64,000 bases of DNA from Cochliopodium minus. Lineage: Eukaryota; Discosea; Himatismenida; Cochliopodiidae. Of this stretch, positions 3,101 through 16,969 are shown in pieces; within the stretch, counting starts at the first letter, position 1; every line of letters starts with the position of its first letter. Where the stretch lies: NCBI GenBank assembly GCA_024220525.1, contig JAMYWO010000033.1:171910-235909 (forward strand). Reading direction: 5' to 3'. A model generated the notes under the pieces. The model made no database searches. It saw only the letters and a program-made list of their open reading frames with translations, and had not been told where the DNA came from. Made by a program: the position numbers and the translations under genes.

Positions 3101-6100
3101 AACAATCAAACAAGAGAATATAAATGCAACCGCCACTGAAAAAAAAAGAATGGGCAACGTGGTATTCCTCATGACCAGCAAAATCCCAGATTGAGAATAA
3201 AATCTTTTCTTCTTTCCATTTCGAGATGTCTTTTAAAAAAAAAAATTTAAAAAATTTAAAAAAGAAAGGACAAAAAAAAATTACCAACACCATGAGTCAT
3301 ATGTTCTTCTTTCTTGTCAACTAGAACGACATTATGAGATTCTCGGTTTTTAATGGGATTAGAAATGGAAGTAATCCTTCTTTTAAAACTTGTTTTCCCA
3401 ACATTCTCACAACCTCCAAAAATAACAAGAAGAGAATGAGAAGAATAAATTTAAAAAAAAAAAAGAAATTTTTTTTACCTACAATCATGACCCTTACTCC
3501 TTGGAACGTTCTCTCTCTACTTAATTCTTTTCCCCTTTCGAAGAAAACATAAAACTCTTTGCCCCTTTCGTTCACAATAGATTTCCCGTTTCGCTTCCCA
3601 TTCTCAAATCTACCTTTAAATCTTGTTTGAGTATCAACATTTTTAAGTTCTACCACTGCATCTGGCTCGCCATTGCTCATTTTTCCCTTAAAGCTCCAAA
3701 CTAATTCCTCACTCTCTTTCCAAATGCACTTCCCAGAACCGACCCACTCTCTTGACTAAAATACATTGATTTTAATTAAATGAGTACTGAACAAATTGTT
3801 GGAAAAAAATTTACATTCTTCCATTCTCCTTCCCAAAGTAAAGTGTTTCCATCCATTTTTGTTCCTGTTCCCTCACATACTTTAAATCCCTTGAAAATAC
3901 CTTTTTGAAAAATAATGATAATAAAAATAAAATATAAATACAAAGATAAATACAGTTTTGAAGTGAATAAAAATGATTTTTTTCATCATAAAATTCACAC
4001 ACAAAGTCAGAAAAAGAAGGAAACTCAATCACAAATGTGAGATTAATTTGAAAGCACTCATCTTCATTGTTTCTTTGAGGTTCATAATTATTCCTTTCCA
4101 ACAAATACGATATTGAGTCGTTTTCATCAAATTGAGCCTTTGTGTCATCCATCATTACTTGTAGGATTTTCATATTTTCTGTTTGAAAGGTGTTATGATG
4201 CTTCAAATTTTTTTTGATGCTATCCAAAATTACTTCTCTCAAAGTGTTTTTGTGGTAAATAAAATAACTTTTTATTTCAATTTTGCTCACTTCTTCACCT
4301 TCTTTTAACTTTGTAAAAAATAATTAAAAATAAAACCAGTATTGTTACAAATAACAAAAATTACTTCTAACAAAGTATATGAACGATAAACAATTGAATA
4401 TAAATTCCCTGTTTTTTTGAATTTCATCAGATCTATTGGAGATTTTTTGGAGTTGTTTAAGTGATTAAGGTCGCACTTGGATTCAATTAGATATGACATG
4501 ATATCAGCCGATAAATACTTTTTGGAAGTGATATTATGAAGTGGAGTGTTGGAGGTATCGTTCAAAGCATTTAAATTTGATTTGTTCTCCACCAAAAACT
4601 TGATAATTTCTAAAGAATGGCTGTCAGAACAAGCCAAATGTAATGGTGAGTTCCTCTTATTATCATTTAGGTTAAGATCCGATTTTTTTTCGATCAAAAA
4701 TTTGAAAACATCAATCGAGGTGTAAGAATTTAAAAAAGACAGGTGGAGAGCACTATTCCCATATTGATCGTTCAAGTTGATATCACATTTATTCTCAATC
4801 AAGTACTCTAAGATCTGAGTAGAGACATTGGAATTCTTACAGACGAGATGCAGAGCATTGTACCCGTTTTGATTGGTGATGTTCAAATCGCTCTTTTTTT
4901 CCACTAACAGTTTCAAAATATCTAGCGAGAAGAATTTGTTGTAACCTAAAAGTATATTCAGTATGAGGAAAAAGAAAAAAAAGATCTAAAATAGTTACAC
5001 GCAAAATGAATGGCGATATCGCCATTCTCATTCCTGCAATTTAAATCACACTTTTTTTCTACCAAGTATTCAATACCTTCCACATTTATGTTTTCATTCA
5101 AACAAGCGGTGTGAAGAGGTCGGTTCTTGTTGAAGTCTTTAAGAAGCAAATTGGCCTTGTTTTCAACCAGAAACTTTATTATATCAACGGATACACATTT
5201 ATTCTCCAAAGCAATATTTAATGGAGAATTTTTGTGCTTGTCTCTTAGATTAATGTCACATTTGTGGTTGATCAAATCGTTGATAACTTCTATGTTTATG
5301 TTATTACTTTCACAAGCACAATGCAAAGGAGATTTTCTATTTTTTTCCAAGTTGATCTCTGACTTATTCTCGAGAAGATATTTGATAATCTTCGGGGACA
5401 TATTGTCATTCAAGCAAGCAATGTGGAGCGGAGTGTTGTTCTCTTTGTCTTTAAGGTTGATATCACATTTTCTTTCTACCAATATTTTTATCACTTCAAG
5501 AGATATGTTCTTATTTTTGCAAGCTAAACAAAAAAAAAATATTATAAGAAGCAAGATGATAGTTTTTGAAAAAAATTTTGGGATGTTTTTACCTACATGT
5601 AAAACAGATAGAGATTTGTTCTTGACCAAATTCACATCCAACCCTTTATGCACCAGAAACTCAATAATATCAACAGGAATACTATTTTCACATAAAATGT
5701 GAAGCAAAGAAGAGTCATCCACACTCTTTACATTAACATCAGCCTTATTATCAAATAGATACTTTACAATTTCTACAGACGCTTTCTCATTTTTACACAA
5801 AAAAGTTAATGCTGTTTCTTTTTCAATGTTTGACAAGTTGATGTCAATCTTGGATTCGACCAAATAAGAAATAATATCCATATTCAAGTTGTTACTCTCG
5901 CAAATATAATGAAGAGGCGTGCTTTTGTTTTTGTTTTGAGAATTCACGCTCATTTTTTTTTCAACAAGATATTTTATTGAATCAAGTGTGACATTCTCAT
6001 TCTTTGACAAAAAATGTAAATAAGTGTTTTTCTTATATCCTCCAACTTTCAAATCTGCTTTCTTATCGAGAAAAAATTTGAGTAGATCAAATTCTAGTTT

Positions 6101-6997
6101 AGGGTTGACACAGTAAGTATGAACGCAATTGTTTCCATATTTGTTCTTCGAATTAACATGGGCTTTGTTAAGTACGAGATGTTTAATTGTATCAACTAAA
6201 TGATCTTCACTTTTGCACAGGCTATGTAGAGATGAAAAAAATGCGTCGTTTTTGGTATTGATGTCACTTTTACTTTTCAAAAGATAATCTATTATTTCTA
6301 TTGATGGATGATAGGTGTTGTTCTTAAAGACTGCCATCTGAAAGGGTGTGTTTCCATAAGAGTCAAGTGCTTTTAAAGATTAAAAATAAAAATCTCAAAT
6401 AAAGTTATTGGAAACTACCTTCAAGTGAGGTCTTTGCATCTATTAAATATTTAATTAGCTCTTTTGAACTCAAAGGTTTATTTAGGCAAATATGAAGCGG
6501 AGTGTTATTGAATTTTCCTTTATTCAAAAATATAATTAGAAATGTTAATGAATTGAGTCATATTTACCCTTAATATTCAAATCTGCTTTACTCTCCACCA
6601 TTAATTTGATGATTTCCAAATCTATATTGTGATTAAATCTACAAGATATGTGCAAAGGTGTTTGATTTTGTTTATCTTTGGCATTCAAGTCACTCTTATT
6701 CTCAATTAAGCATCTGATGATGTCTATAGTCAGATTTAGATTTTCAAATGCATTATGCAATGGAGTATCTAAATCAATATTCCTGTTATTAATGTCACAA
6801 TTATTTTCTATTAAGTATTTAATCATATCAAGAGATATAATTTCTTTTTTGCATGCCAAATGTAAAGGTGTATTTCCATTTTGATCCTTCAATTTTGATA
6901 AACCATTTTCCTCTAATATTCTCAAATTCTTTTCCAAATTTAAAAATCCCAAATCCCCAAGAATAGATAATCCTTTATTAATTTGATCTGTTTCCAT
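190..6997 (-). CDS. Roco-family protein: ankyrin repeats, MORN-like repeats, Roc GTPase, COR (3' partial)
   Basis: Sixteen exons with consistent phases: 6568-6997, 6419-6517, 5593-6369, 4999-5523, 4365-4945, 3954-4308, 3815-3900, 3479-3755, 3285-3413, 3016-3229, 2867-2961, 1911-2810, 1720-1851, 1403-1665, 782-1346, 190-528; at least 1922 residues. Residues ~20-800 are roughly 20 ankyrin units (consensus KSDLN...PLH.AC). Residues ~920-1035 hold MORN-like units (FKGFKVCEGTG, RFKGRFENGKRNGKS). The Roc domain (~1040-1190) has P-loop GCENVGKTS, switch II WDFAGHEEYH and G4 TKLD. A ~300-residue insert encoded by exon 12 follows, then COR-A (LHKLGVIIFF, VPDPKWF) and COR-B (YLIPLLFP, FEWTFLYFLPF, ending YYWMNG). 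Known Roco proteins couple Roc GTPase/dimerisation to a kinase; here the kinase would lie beyond the gap. No leucine-rich repeats precede Roc, which is atypical. The junction at 1720/1665 uses a weak GTCAAA donor. A separate ankyrin gene is unlikely because the phases join across 4365/4308. Confidence 0.85.
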
Positions 6998-10468: not shown

Positions 10469-13400
10469 ATGAGCTTTTCATTTGGCAATAGGAAAACCAC
10501 CAATGTAGATTTAATCAATGCTGTTATTATGATGCTATATGATATTTCTGTTGGAAATACAACAATCAAAAAAGAAGAGATAAAAAAGAAATTATTGGAA
10601 GGATATGAACAAGGAAAGAATTTCGATTTCTATAAATTATTTCCAGAAATCAAGGTGACCGAAGAGATTGATTTCCTATTGAGCCTTAATGATTCTGCGG
10701 TATCATACACTGAAAAATTTGAAAAAATCGAATTATTTGATCAATTTGGAGAGGAAACAAGATTAGAGTAAAATATATTTTTGCGCAATATATATATATA
10801 TTTTTTAATACATTTTGTTTTAAAGATCAAAGGATCCATTCAAAGAAAATAGAATTCCATCTTCTCTTTTGGGATATATGCTTTCATTTCTATCCATTCA
10901 AGATGTTGGTGCTTTATTAAGCACAAATTATAGTATGAGGAATACAATCTTAAAATGCAAATCATATTGGAGGTTAAATTTTCCAAATAAAATAAATATA
11001 CTTCTAATAAATTATTTTATTAATACCATTTTATTTAACCAAATATAACAGGAAAATTTATCTCAAAAATATGAAAATGAGTAGAGCCTCCAGGATTCTC
11101 AGATTCGTGAGCTTATATCAGCAAGATAATGTCAAGGTAGTGATATTGAATAATTTAAACGGGGATACTAGATACTTGATAGATTATTTGGTCTCAATTA
11201 CATTTCTATTTCCAAATATAGAAGCAATTGCAATCATCAATTCACCTTGTTTTTATGTAAATTCATATTTTTAATAATTCATAAATCTTGATTTTCTTTT
11301 TTTTTTAGTCAAGAGGAATTTATGATGTATCAAAACTTTCCAGTTTTTCCCACAACAACTTGCATATCCTCAATATTTCTAATACCTTTGTCAGTCCAAA
11401 CGATTTCAAAAACTTTGAGCAAGTTTTCCCAAATTTGGAAGTATTGATAGCTCCATCCTCGGCATACAATATTCCCACCAGTAATAACGTTTTTTCCCAT
11501 CAAAATTTGAAGATTGTGGATGTCAGTTTTGGTGAAATCAAGTTTGAAAATACTGGAGGAGCAAAAGTATTTGCAGTTGGTGTAAATATTTGAACTATTA
11601 TTTTTAAAAATTAAAATCTAATTATTCTCATCCAGAACAAATTACATGAAGGACTTGATTGCTTCAATGAAAATATCTATACAATGATGAACAGTGACAA
11701 TTTAAAGGGGACTCCGATCATCAATGCGCTAAAGAACATTATTCCTCATGTAGGGACTTTTGAAATCAAAAGCTACCAAACAGAATTTAACATTTTTCAC
11801 CACGCTTGTATTAATGGAGACTTGGAAACCTTAAAATTTCTATTAGAGCATAATCCCAACTTAATTGAATCTTTAACTAATAACGAAGATAACTTGGAAG
11901 TTGTTTATTATGACAAAGGTCGAAATTTCTGTTTTTTTCTTGTTATTCTTAAAATTTTTTTTTTTAATTAGTTTGTTATCCATTTGACTTCAATGGTAGA
12001 AGAGGATCGAAAAGTGGAAGCGATTCTGATCTTTTCAAGTGTACTCCTTTGGCTCTCAGTATTCAACACGATCAAAAACCTGTTGTTTCTTTTCTTTTGG
12101 AAAAGGGGGCAAATTTGTATAACGGGAACATTTCTTCTCTTTTTATTTCTCTTGGTGTTTGGGGAGACTCACTTAATTTAGAAAAAACAAAATACTACGT
12201 CAATCTTTTGCTAAAGCATGGAGGAGATCTCAATTTCAAGCATTTTTGTAATCCAGTGAAAATTTTTGACAAATCCACCGAAAAGAAAGAATTTTTGCTT
12301 CCTTTGGAGTTTTTGCTGAAAACAGAAAGAGAAAAAGATGGAGATAGACCCCATAGTAATCAAAATGCAGTCCAGTTTTTCCAAATTGTAGACTTTTTGT
12401 GGAAGCAAGGAGCAAAAATTGAAATCATCGACCCCTTTTTTTCATTTGATTACTCTAATTACCAAGAATTACTTGAGTTCTTTGTCTCCAATAATGCTTT
12501 GGTTGGTGGTGATTCTATCAACAAAACTGACCAACTTGGCAGATCAGGTATAATGAGAGCTTTCATGCACGCAAAGAACTTGCAATCCATAGGTCAACTT
12601 CTCTCTCTTTCTTTAATTGGTGAAAAAGCTGGCTTGGTGGATAAAGACAACAACTCCCTTTATCACTATCTCTTTTATCTCCTTAACAACCAAAACTCCA
12701 CTATCGACTCAGTAATCTCAAAACCTGAAATAATTCAAATCTTGTCTCAATTTAAATCTTATAGAGTTCCTGCCACCCAAAACAGCTTTGGATTCAACCC
12801 TCTCCTTTTGCTACACTGTTGCCCTTCCATAAAAAAAACTAACACAAACTTGAACGACGCTTTTTCAGAACTCTCTGCGAATTTGTGCAGCAATGATCCA
12901 GACAAGAATGGATGGACCCCTATCCATCAAGTCGCTTTCCTCAACAATTTCTCTTCGTTGATCGACCTTGTCAATAATGGCTTTGACATAAATGTGGTGG
13001 ATAAAACTGGCACTTCTCCTTTGTTGGCCATTTTCAAACATCCCATTAACGAAAACTTGACTGCTGTTAGATTTGCAACAGATTGTGTAAACACTCCTGT
13101 TGACAAGTTTAACTGTTTCGCTTATCTTTTGTGCAACGGTGCAAAAATGGATATTATTGATGATCAAAAGAGAAACATCTTCCATTTTATCGCTCTCAAG
13201 GACATCAATGAGATTATCTCCTTTTGGTTGTCCAAATGTTTCGAGGAGAAAGCATGGTGTGACACATCCAACATTCCTAACCACTCTTTAGATTTTTCAA
13301 ACTTTGAAACTTCGTCAAAGTTGGTAAATTCTTTAGATGTTGATGGTAACAAAAAATTATTCGATTAATTACTTGATCTAAACCACTTTTTTTTTAGGTA

Positions 13401-16400
13401 ATTCTCCACTTGTCATCGCCGCAGCCAATGGAAACAAAACTCTTGTTAGCTTGCTGTTGACTCTTGGTGCAGATCCGAATGTCCTCAACCAAGAGAACAA
13501 AGACGTGTTGATGAGCATCATCCCAAACCTCAACACCGAAAAAAGATTCGAATCCTCTGAGTCCAATGGATTCGCCAAAGTGATCTTCGATACCGTCTAT
13601 TTGAAAGATTTAGCCTTGATTTATCCAAACTGGTTGTTGGATCACGAAGATAAAAACATCAACATCATCTATGATTCAAAAACTGATACTAAAAAAACCT
13701 CTCTCAGTACCCTCACTTTTAACAGTAAACATTTTTTATTTTTTATTTTATTTTTGTTTTATAAAAATGTTTTATTCTTAGGGAGAGCAGTTTGCATCTC
13801 CTTGATCGAGAAGATCAACAATTTTAATCAAGTTGATTCCATAAACGGAAGAGTAAGATTGAACTACCTTTTTCACCTTTGAATTACCAAAAATTTTTTT
13901 CAAATTGAAATTTTAGGATTGTGTATCTTATATTTCTTCTCAATTGTCTTTGGTCACTGAGCCTTCTGTTTCTGAACGTTTACTCAATCTCAAAGTTAAC
14001 ACCAATAATATTGATAAAACGTAAGTCAAAATTCTACTTTCAGTTTCATTTTAATATTTCTATCTTTTAAAGTGATATCTCTCCATTTCAATATTTCCTG
14101 AGTTCTCTTATTACAAATTGGGTTGTTCCATCTGGATGTAATTTTTTTTAAAAAAAAGAATATTAAAAAATGATTAAACAATATTCAGGGACTTCAGGAA
14201 TTGAGAAATTTGGAAGGTAAGATAATATTTTTTTTAAATAAACAAATTTTTGAAAAACTACTCATTTTAGGATGTTACTGGTTAACGGAGCTAACCCTAA
14301 TTTTGTAGATCCATCATCTAAAAACTCACTTCTAATCACTGCGTGCTCTTTGATAAATTGCCCTTCTTCCATAGTATCAAGTTTGAGTAAGATCATTCGA
14401 AATAATAATTAAGTGAAATTAAAACATTTTATACAAAAAAAAAAAAAAAGTTGAGTTTAAGGCAGACATCAAATATCAATCCCCTATTACAGGGCGTACA
14501 GCTTTGCAAGAATTGTTGATGGTCATTCCTACTTCCAACACACAAAAGTTGGAACAAAGCAAAAAACTCAAAGCAATTTTGGATTGCGAAGAAGTAGAAT
14601 GTGACACATTGGATAACTCTGGCAGAACACCTTTGATAATCTCTGCAATGCAAGGTAACATTAGTGCTTGTTTGTTGTTCCTTGAGGCATCAAAAAGAGG
14701 AAAAAATCTCTTGATAGATCAATGCGAAAAAGAAGGTGATCAGTTTTCAGCTTTGCACTATGCTGCCAGCCATGTAGAATCTTGCGATAAGGTATTATTT
14801 TAAATATTTTTTTCTTTTTAACATTTTTTTTTTAAAAAAATATTAGTATCAAATGTACTTGTACAACCAAATTCTCAACGCTGGTGCAAATTGTAACATC
14901 AAAGACAAAAAAGGGAGAACTCCTCATGACTTGATCTTTTGTGGAAAGGAAAAGAACCTTGAGGAAACCGAAAAAAACAAGAAGATCATTTCTTACATAG
15001 AAAACCTTTGGATGAAAAAAACCGACAACAAATTTGGTTTGTTTCAAGCTCCCAAACAAGATCTATACGATGACATCGATGATAGATTCGATCCTTTTGG
15101 TACTTCCATCGAGGTTTATCAGTACGGCGTGTCCATTCCTTTAGAAAAAAACACCATTTTTCAACCCAAGAAAATTTCTGAGACGGGTGGTGTTCAAAAC
15201 TTCTTCCATAACATCTCATTCCATGACGAATATGTAATTTTTATTATTCGCAATTTTCTTATTTTATTTTTCGACTCTAAATCAAAAATTTTGCAAAGGT
15301 TAATTACTCCAGTGAAGAGCTCAGGTTGGGAAATTGGGCTAGATCTAACTTTAAAGACTTCAAATTTCCTACAAACGAGTTGAAGCCGTCTCCTTTCATC
15401 TCCAGAAGACCCAACCCTTTTTCTTTTGACGCCAACAACACCTCAAGCACTACCAATACTATTGAAGAAAACAAAACAAAGAACCCCTTTGGAAATGACC
15501 CTATCGTTTCTCCATTTGGTGTCCCCAAAGTGTGCAACACAGAAAAAGACTTTCATCCTTTTGACAAAGAACAACCAAAGGCCAAAAGTATCTTTGAAAA
15601 ACCCATTGAAAAACCACTCAGTTATCATTCTTCCTTGAAGCCTCCTGTCTCCAATCAATTCACTGCTGGAAAGAATTTCGGCTTTAACACTTCAAATGAG
15701 GGTGGATTTGTGTTCGCTGCTAAACCTGAGTTGGAGTCTTCCTTTGTTCCTCACGTCGGTCCAAATGAAAAGGTATCTAATTTGGAATTGATCAAGGGTG
15801 GCGGATTTACCATCAAAAACTTTGAACAACTTTCCCAAAAAGAAGAAAACACTTTTGCCACACCTGGATTCACTTTTGAAATCAAAGAGAAAGAGGAAAA
15901 GAAGGGGGAAAATAAAGAGGAAGGTTTTATTTCCACTCCTAATTCTGAATTTGAAATTAAAGAAAAGGATGAGGGGAAGAAGGAAGAAGGCGGAGGGTTT
16001 ACATTTAAAGAATCGGATGGAACTGAAGAAAAATTTACTTTTGGAATCAAAAATAAAGAAGAAAAAGATAAATGGAAACTTTATTATGATGAGAAAGAAA
16101 AAAAAAAGGAGGAAACAAAAAAAACATCAAAGGCTAGTAATTTGTGCATCTTTTTCCAAAGGGGAAATTGCAAAATGGGGGACAACTGCAAATTTTCACA
16201 CGCTTTAAACACAGATCCTAATACCACAAACGACCCTTTTTCTACTGGCACTTTTCAAGAAAGCGAAAAAGACAAAGTTTATGCCTTTGAAAACGAATAC
16301 ACCAAATTCAACAAATCTATCTTTTCTTTTCGCAAAAGAGAGGGTCTCAGTCCTCACAACCAACTCAATCTGGGAGGTGGCTTTGGTGGTGGTTTAGGTT

Positions 16401-16969
16401 TTGGTGGTTTTGGTGGGGGAGCCGTTGGAGGTGGTCTTGGAGGTGGTTTTGCACAAGCTCCTCCAGGTGGATTTGGTGCGCCACTTGGAGGTGGTTTTGC
16501 ACAAGCTCCGGGTGGTTTTGGTGCGCCAGTCGGAGGTGGTTTTGGCCAAGCTCCACAGGGAGGTTTTGGAGGTGGTTTTGGTGGAGGTGCGCCATTTGGA
16601 GGTGGTTTTGGGGGTGGTTTTGGTGCGCCAGTCGGAGGTGGTCTCGGAGCACCAGGTGGTTTTGGTCAAGCTCCACAGGGAGGTTTTGGAGGAGTTTTTG
16701 CTCAACGTCCTGCCACTAAAAACATCTATCGAAATCAAGCAGTCAAAGAGGATGATGAAAACGAAGGCAAAAAAGGTTTTGGACCTCGTTTTGTTTTTAA
16801 AAAGGATGATAACAAAGATGATAAAGATGATAAAGATGATAAAGATGAAAAAAATGATAAAGATGATAAAGAGAGAGATGATGAGAAAAAAAAAGAAAGT
16901 GGATTTTCTTTCGAAAAGAATGATACTAAAAAATATGATTTTACTTTTGGAAACAAAAATGATAAATGA
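10469..16969 (+). CDS. F-box / ankyrin / GLEBS-like / CCCH / FG-repeat protein
   Basis: Fifteen exons with consistent phases: 10469-10767, 10826-10972, 11052-11256, 11309-11581, 11636-11918, 11972-13345, 13398-13724, 13782-13852, 13917-14020, 14073-14137, 14189-14216, 14271-14386, 14451-14791, 14847-15233, 15299-16969; 1896 residues. An F-box-like segment lies at ~107-145 (IPSSLLGYMLSFLSIQDVGA), a short LRR-like stretch at ~150-310 (PNLEVL, NLKIVDVS), and ankyrin repeats at ~335-1245 (GRTPLIISAMQGNI, AGANCNIKDKKGRTP). Residues ~1307-1355 resemble the Nup98 GLEBS motif that binds Rae1/Gle2 (TIFQP, then VNYSSEELRLGNW). A Cx7Cx5Cx3H zinc finger at ~1620 (CIFFQRGNC, then CKFSH) is followed by ~105 residues of GGFG/GFGAP repeats and an acidic Lys/Asp tail. 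CCCH plus FG is the NUP42 arrangement. Inferred role: a nuclear-pore-linked or mRNA-export-linked adaptor, possibly an SCF substrate receptor. The donor at 11919 is GTCGAA, a weak site; 14189-14216 is only 28 nt. Confidence 0.85.
16371..16700 (+). repeat. GGT/GGA-rich minisatellite coding FG repeats
   Basis: Imperfect tandem units around GGAGGTGGTTTTGG(T/G)GC encode GGGFG, GGFGAP and GFGQAP. This is by far the most GC-rich stretch in the window and contrasts sharply with its surroundings. It lies entirely inside the last exon of the F-box/ankyrin gene and keeps the frame. Copy number is likely to vary between strains, and short-read assembly could compress it. A second small array (GATAAAGAT units, about 16805-16866) encodes the Asp/Lys tail. 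Confidence 0.85.

What the first reader, a model, noticed from the sequence alone, without database searches (positions are those of the whole stretch)
10469..16969. F-box/ankyrin protein with a nucleoporin-like tail (GLEBS-like, CCCH, FG)
All 15 exons join in phase, so one 1896-residue product combines an F-box-like N-terminus, a long ankyrin array, a segment matching the Nup98 GLEBS motif by eye (TIFQP, then YSSEELRLGNW), a Cx7Cx5Cx3H zinc finger and about 105 residues of FG repeats. GLEBS binds Rae1/Gle2 and CCCH-FG is the NUP42 layout. I know of no described protein joining these to an F-box. It suggests ubiquitin-linked control at the nuclear pore or in mRNA export, or a pore component with an ankyrin docking platform.
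Basis: partly seen in the sequence, partly recalled or inferred. Interest (0 to 1): 0.88.

Follow-up and report, generated by a model that had tools for sequence, protein, structure and literature searches.

The report
Ankyrin protein with nuclear-pore-like tail
In a single-celled eukaryote, one transcribed gene joins a degradation-adaptor-like start, a long binding platform and a tail like those that line the nuclear pore; two other genes in the same genome mix similar parts, which suggests this lineage built ankyrin platforms into its nuclear export machinery.

Summary
The gene is real. All 15 exons join in frame into 1896 residues, and a transcript-derived protein (EukProt, Trinity name) matches end to end apart from one 3-residue repeat unit.

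Ankyrin repeats and a CCCH finger are significant. The FG block, 13 FG in 116 residues with 0.9% charged residues, is Nup98-like. The F-box is sub-threshold in Pfam; a collinear paralogue on contig C154 (F-box-like, LRR-like, ankyrin, FG tail) supports it.

The GLEBS call is weak. A core that I trimmed matches Pfam Nup98_GLEBS only at E 0.086. My own profile does not single it out, and one unrelated family scores better on another tile.

The same genome encodes a canonical Nup98, two Rae1-like proteins and, on contig C59, a clear GLEBS-ankyrin protein. The theme therefore holds even if this GLEBS does not.

Best reading: a lineage-specific FG-nucleoporin-like ankyrin adaptor on the mRNA-export route, possibly an SCF receptor. 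Function is inferred.

The parts
10469..16969 (+). Whole gene, 15 exons, 1896 aa
   Evidence: transcript-derived P0001 identical but for one DKD unit
10851..11064 (+). F-box-like, residues 109-153 (intron 10973-11051 inside)
   Evidence: PF12937 E 0.0064 on a cut-out piece, below cut-off; paralogue C154 PF00646 E 0.0006 on a cut-out piece, also below cut-off
11083..11641 (+). LRR-like stretch, residues about 160-310
   Evidence: by eye; no LRR family in Pfam at E up to 10; partly conserved in C154
11774..14993 (+). Ankyrin array, partly degenerate, residues about 355-1260
   Evidence: Pfam Ank_2 2.7e-27, 5 stretches; limits by eye
15150..15352 (+). GLEBS-like segment, residues 1313-1358 (intron 15234-15298 inside)
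   Evidence: PF21240 E 0.086 on a 28-aa core, residues 1331-1358; not singled out by own profile
15356..16138 (+). Charged linker with scattered PFG/FxF/FG motifs, residues 1360-1620
   Evidence: 4 FG in 261 residues, 34% charged
16145..16201 (+). CCCH zinc finger, residues 1623-1641
   Evidence: PF00642 E 7.4e-6, above cut-off
16364..16711 (+). FG block, residues 1696-1811
   Evidence: 13 FG, D+E 0%, R+K 0.9%
16712..16969 (+). Acidic/basic repeat and C-terminal FxF/FG motifs, stop
   Evidence: repeat-number difference in the transcript

Best explanation
A lineage-specific FG-nucleoporin-like adaptor. The ankyrin/LRR-like half is the partner- or cargo-binding platform (inferred). The disordered tail places the protein in or at the pore: its charge-poor FG block mixes with the FG barrier, the CCCH finger touches RNA or a pore partner, and the GLEBS-like segment holds one of the genome's two Rae1-like proteins (each inferred). 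The F-box would let SKP1-CUL1 be recruited there (inferred, optional). Shown: gene structure, agreement with a transcript-derived protein, ankyrin, CCCH, FG composition, a collinear paralogue, and a separate GLEBS-ankyrin gene in the same genome.
For: One transcript. The FG block matches published Nup98 FG-domain statistics (11.2 FG per 100 residues, 0.9% charged; published medians 9 per 100 and 2.5% charged, PMC4283134, passages). FG is concentrated in the tail: 21 in 631 residues against 5 in 1265 before it. Paralogue C154 has the same order: of 15 BLASTP pieces the only three with E below 0.01 are collinear, at residues 107-212 (9e-12), 235-268 (0.007) and 1064-1183 (5e-4), and it has its own FG tail with 15 FG in 490 residues. 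C59 joins a GLEBS 55% identical to the local Nup98 GLEBS (E 3.6e-11) to an ankyrin array, GLEBS and first repeat in one reading frame. The local Nup98 has PF04096 at 4e-25. Two Rae1-like loci at E 8e-27 and 7e-26; the best PDB matches of a piece of each are Rae1 chains, 7.6e-30 and 6.6e-29, ahead of other WD40 proteins.
Against: GLEBS: no PDB match for a 109-aa piece; no Pfam match at whole length or with 109- and 49-aa pieces; own 3-sequence profile gives the tail 2.4 bits, reached or passed by 149 of 20,000 tail shuffles, and gives the whole protein 1.2 bits, E 37, rank 67 among 1908 sequences, the rest decoy frames that include the two true GLEBS genes; in the tile scan PrkA (0.047) beats it and UBX7_N (0.094) nearly equals it. 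The usual EDY ending reads GNW here. The F-box is below cut-off, and a two-gene profile finds no PDB chain at E up to 10. No PF13634 hit in this tail. No localisation data.
Confidence: 0.5

Rival explanations
1. FG-tailed ankyrin scaffold at the pore with no ubiquitin role: the F-box-like stretch is only the cap of the LRR-like/ankyrin half.
For: F-box sub-threshold in both paralogues; no PDB match for their profile.
Against: The F-box-like stretch lies inside the best-conserved part between the paralogues.
Confidence: 0.25
2. Cytoplasmic or nuclear RNA-binding protein: CCCH plus a GGFG-rich low-complexity block of hnRNP type (recalled comparison), GLEBS resemblance by chance, no link to the pore.
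For: The block is 49% glycine; CCCH is a general RNA-binding finger (recalled); GLEBS weak.
Against: PFG and FxFG motifs also in the linker; the paralogue's tail is rich in NPFG and FSFG, and NPFG is also common in the local Nup98; C59 shows GLEBS joined to ankyrins in this genome.
Confidence: 0.18
3. The GLEBS-like segment binds Bub3, as the GLEBS of Bub1/BubR1 does (recalled), and the protein acts in mitosis.
For: GLEBS motifs also occur in Bub1/BubR1 (recalled; no call).
Against: No kinase domain in Pfam; the FG block fits the pore better.
Confidence: 0.05

Closest known systems
Nup98 (Nup98-Nup96)
   Same: GLEBS-like segment followed by FG-bearing disordered sequence; charge-poor FG block
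   Different: No autoproteolytic domain (PF04096 absent); the F-box-like, LRR-like and ankyrin half is foreign to Nup98; the genome has its own canonical Nup98 on C173
NUP42
   Same: CCCH finger followed by FG repeats (CCCH position recalled; FG part in PMC5998080 passages)
   Different: Large folded N-terminal half; Gle1-binding motif not tested
F-box/LRR (FBXL) proteins
   Same: F-box-like stretch followed by LRR-like repeats (family recalled)
   Different: Sub-threshold F-box, LRR only by eye, ankyrin array and FG tail added
Ubiquitin ligases linked to Rae1 or the pore: PHR proteins (RPM-1/Highwire) with F-box protein FSN-1 and Rae1; plant HOS1
   Same: Ubiquitin machinery tied to Rae1 or to the pore (PMC4806438 passages; PMC8953349 passages)
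   Different: Rae1 and the F-box protein are separate chains there, the ligases are RING proteins, and no such protein with an ankyrin array plus FG tail was seen in those passages

Membership tests
FG nucleoporin | Charge-poor, FG-dense disordered domain | tested here: met
   116 residues, 11.2 FG/100, 0.9% charged; much shorter than the 400-1000-residue Nup98 domains analysed in PMC4283134 (passages)
FG nucleoporin | Pfam Nucleoporin_FG (PF13634) | tested here: not met
   no hit in the protein at E up to 5 or at this locus at E up to 0.01
FG nucleoporin | Located at the nuclear pore | not testable with these tools
   needs microscopy
Nup98 | Autoproteolytic domain PF04096 | tested here: not met
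   absent; present in C173 at 4e-25
GLEBS motif | Profile match to PF21240 | tested here: inconclusive
   E 0.086 on a trimmed core, none on longer pieces, not listed in the genome search; own profile negative
GLEBS motif | Binds Rae1 | not testable with these tools
   two Rae1-like genes exist
F-box protein | F-box domain | tested here: inconclusive
   E 0.0064 here, E 0.0006 in paralogue C154, both on cut-out pieces and below cut-off; no PDB match
F-box protein | Binds SKP1 | not testable with these tools
   needs a binding assay
Ankyrin-repeat protein | Ankyrin repeats | tested here: met
   Ank_2 2.7e-27
NUP42 | CCCH finger plus FG repeats | tested here: met
   a generic combination, not enough for membership
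NUP42 | Gle1-binding motif | not tested
   no comparison made

The most novel reading that the evidence does not exclude
A pore-tethered SCF receptor: an F-box protein anchored by its own GLEBS and FG tail at the nuclear pore, presenting ankyrin-bound clients for ubiquitylation during mRNA export, in a lineage that has repeatedly welded ankyrin platforms onto GLEBS or FG modules (C33, C154, C59).
Probability: 0.25. Interest if true: 0.85.

Novelty: new variant of a known kind. Interest (0 to 1): 0.6.

Why it matters
Pore composition is usually described as conserved cores with lineage-specific FG proteins. Ankyrin platforms joined to GLEBS or FG modules in at least three genes of one genome would be a new way of adding client binding, perhaps ubiquitylation, to the pore. 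Four searches of an open-access library showed no title or abstract start describing such a protein: 0 papers with all four terms; 15 of 42 listed; 10 of 18 listed; 4 of 4 listed. A review of pore evolution has no occurrence of 'ankyrin' or 'F-box' in its main text (PMC8421043, term search).

Tried and rejected
Two-gene or artefact model: rejected by the transcript-derived protein. Deep GLEBS profile from Nup98 relatives: the local Nup98 GLEBS found 9 candidates, none at E<=10; a carrier query with an animal GLEBS found 710 of 714 candidates at E<=10, but the 120 listed were vertebrates wherever a name was given, bar one hemichordate (one row had no name), so they were not used. The PDB search with alignment A1 hit Nup98 strongly, but a human Nup98 row is in A1, so it is no independent test. 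Other tails like this one in the genome: only the gene itself at E<=1. Other GLEBS copies: C173 and C59; two weaker hits (C235 E 0.027, C318 E 0.105) lie in frames that look unrelated by eye (kinase/LRR-like; beside an F-box-like piece) and were dropped as chance. F-box-like C-terminus of C59 seen by eye: no Pfam match at E up to 10. A second NUP42-type gene: of 11 CCCH hits, one the query itself, loci were given for 8; I read the mid-point frames of the 7 others and saw no FG repeats; 3 hits were not read. Endocytic adaptor (NPF/DPF motifs, recalled): only 2 NPF and 2 DPF in the tail. Organism: not identified; a guess at Anaeramoeba led to one paper searched by terms, whose passages gave no host genome size, and is not claimed; a search by contig number gave nothing useful. 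Structure prediction was not run: the transcript protein exceeds the size limit, joined exons are not admissible letters, single exons would cut the domains in question, and a GLEBS takes its shape with its partner (recalled).

Full report
OBSERVATION. A protein search (words from residues 1-1500; 17 hits among the 8000 candidates scored, those sharing most words) returned P0001, a EukProt entry whose name has the form of a Trinity transcript, complete ORF, 1893 aa. It equals the genomic model except for one missing DKD unit in the acidic repeat. The other 16 hits all carry ankyrin families in their Pfam lists and are 20-39% identical.

DOMAINS. Pfam on the whole protein: five ankyrin families from 2.7e-27 to 1.7e-13, zf-CCCH 7.4e-6 and weaker finger families; nothing for F-box, LRR, FG or GLEBS at E up to 5. 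Cut-out F-box piece: PF12937 E 0.0064, 16.7 bits against a cut-off of 24.3. FG block 1696-1811: 13 FG, no acidic residue, 0.9% basic. Published Nup98 FG domains have a median of 9 FG per 100 and 2.5% charged residues (PMC4283134, passages); the local Nup98 FG domain has 8.9 per 100. The linker before the finger is highly charged (34%) with only 4 FG in 261 residues, so the tail is not one uniform FG domain.

GLEBS. For: a 28-residue core (1331-1358), chosen after inspection, matches only PF21240 in Pfam, E 0.086, 13.4 bits; the local Nup98 gives 18.8 and the C59 protein 18.9 bits on 67- and 70-aa pieces, also below the cut-off of 27. Of 134 tiles across the protein only this one matches PF21240 at E up to 1. 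In an alignment with C173, C59 and human Nup98 the only four invariant columns are Y, S, E and R, and this segment has them. Against: other families reach similar E-values on other tiles (PrkA 0.047, UBX7_N 0.094; 25 of 26 families shown); phmmer against PDB finds nothing; my profile from three GLEBS sequences gives the tail 2.4 bits, reached or passed by 149 of 20,000 shuffles, and the whole protein 1.2 bits, E 37, rank 67 among 1908 sequences. By my arithmetic PF21240 alone gives about 0.086/24,736 x 134, near 5e-4, for this protein, without allowing for the choice of core. I put the label at about 0.55-0.6; that weighs the context, not the sequence match alone.

SAME GENOME (44.65 Mb, 598 contigs, organism unnamed). 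C154: F-box-like (PF00646 E 0.0006 on a 51-aa piece, cut-off not reached), LRR-like by eye, degenerate ankyrins (Ank_2 5.5e-7), FG tail (15 FG in 490 residues), collinear with the window gene; no GLEBS seen. A search with the C154 front half returned only C154 itself at E<=0.1, while the window gene's front half found C154 at 5.2e-9. C59: GLEBS near the N-terminus, linker, then ankyrins (Ank_2 1.4e-34); an 82-bp intron, one of two that keep the frame open, joins two halves of an ankyrin repeat; its GLEBS is 55% identical to that of Nup98, E 3.6e-11. C173: canonical Nup98 with FG repeats and autopeptidase domain. C21 and C539: two Rae1-like loci out of 10 WD40-type matches at eight loci; pieces of both have human-type Rae1 chains as best PDB matches. 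The genome search with PF21240 listed only C173 and C59 (E 0.114 and 0.135, below the family cut-off); the window gene was not listed.

HOW IT MAY WORK. Folded half as platform, disordered half as pore anchor, F-box as optional link to SCF. Precedents for ubiquitin ligases tied to Rae1 or the pore exist: PHR proteins bind Rae1 and the F-box protein FSN-1 (PMC4806438, passages), and plant HOS1 is a RING E3 that binds the pore (PMC8953349, passages). None of the steps of function was tested here.

VERDICT. Observation confirmed, interpretation partly supported. The strongest new point is not the window's GLEBS but the set: three genes of one genome joining ankyrins to GLEBS or FG modules. 

Noticed in passing
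L019 (contig C59) from 4712: GLEBS-ankyrin gene: clear GLEBS at the N-terminus, then a long ankyrin array; a stronger GLEBS case than the window gene. Its 3' end was not modelled.
   Followed up: partly
L017 (contig C154), minus strand: Paralogue of the window gene: F-box-like, LRR-like, degenerate ankyrins, NPFG/FSFG-rich tail; no GLEBS or CCCH seen.
   Followed up: partly
L036 (C21) and L037 (C539): Two Rae1-like genes; a frame just upstream in L037 begins with an FG-containing stretch.
   Followed up: partly
window 4958-6379, minus strand: Another large ankyrin reading frame near the gene studied (an ankyrin hit at 6779-6880).
   Followed up: no
L021, L023, L024, L025: Near-identical CCCH-finger sequences on C23 (two), C18 and C39, one in a 668-residue frame; looks recently amplified.
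   Followed up: no
L029 (contig C104): Long frame with many DVSNLFG-type repeats; hits Nucleoporin_FG but may be something else.
   Followed up: no
window about 16832-16890: The DKD-type repeat differs by one unit between genome and transcript-derived protein, so it may be length-variable.
   Followed up: no
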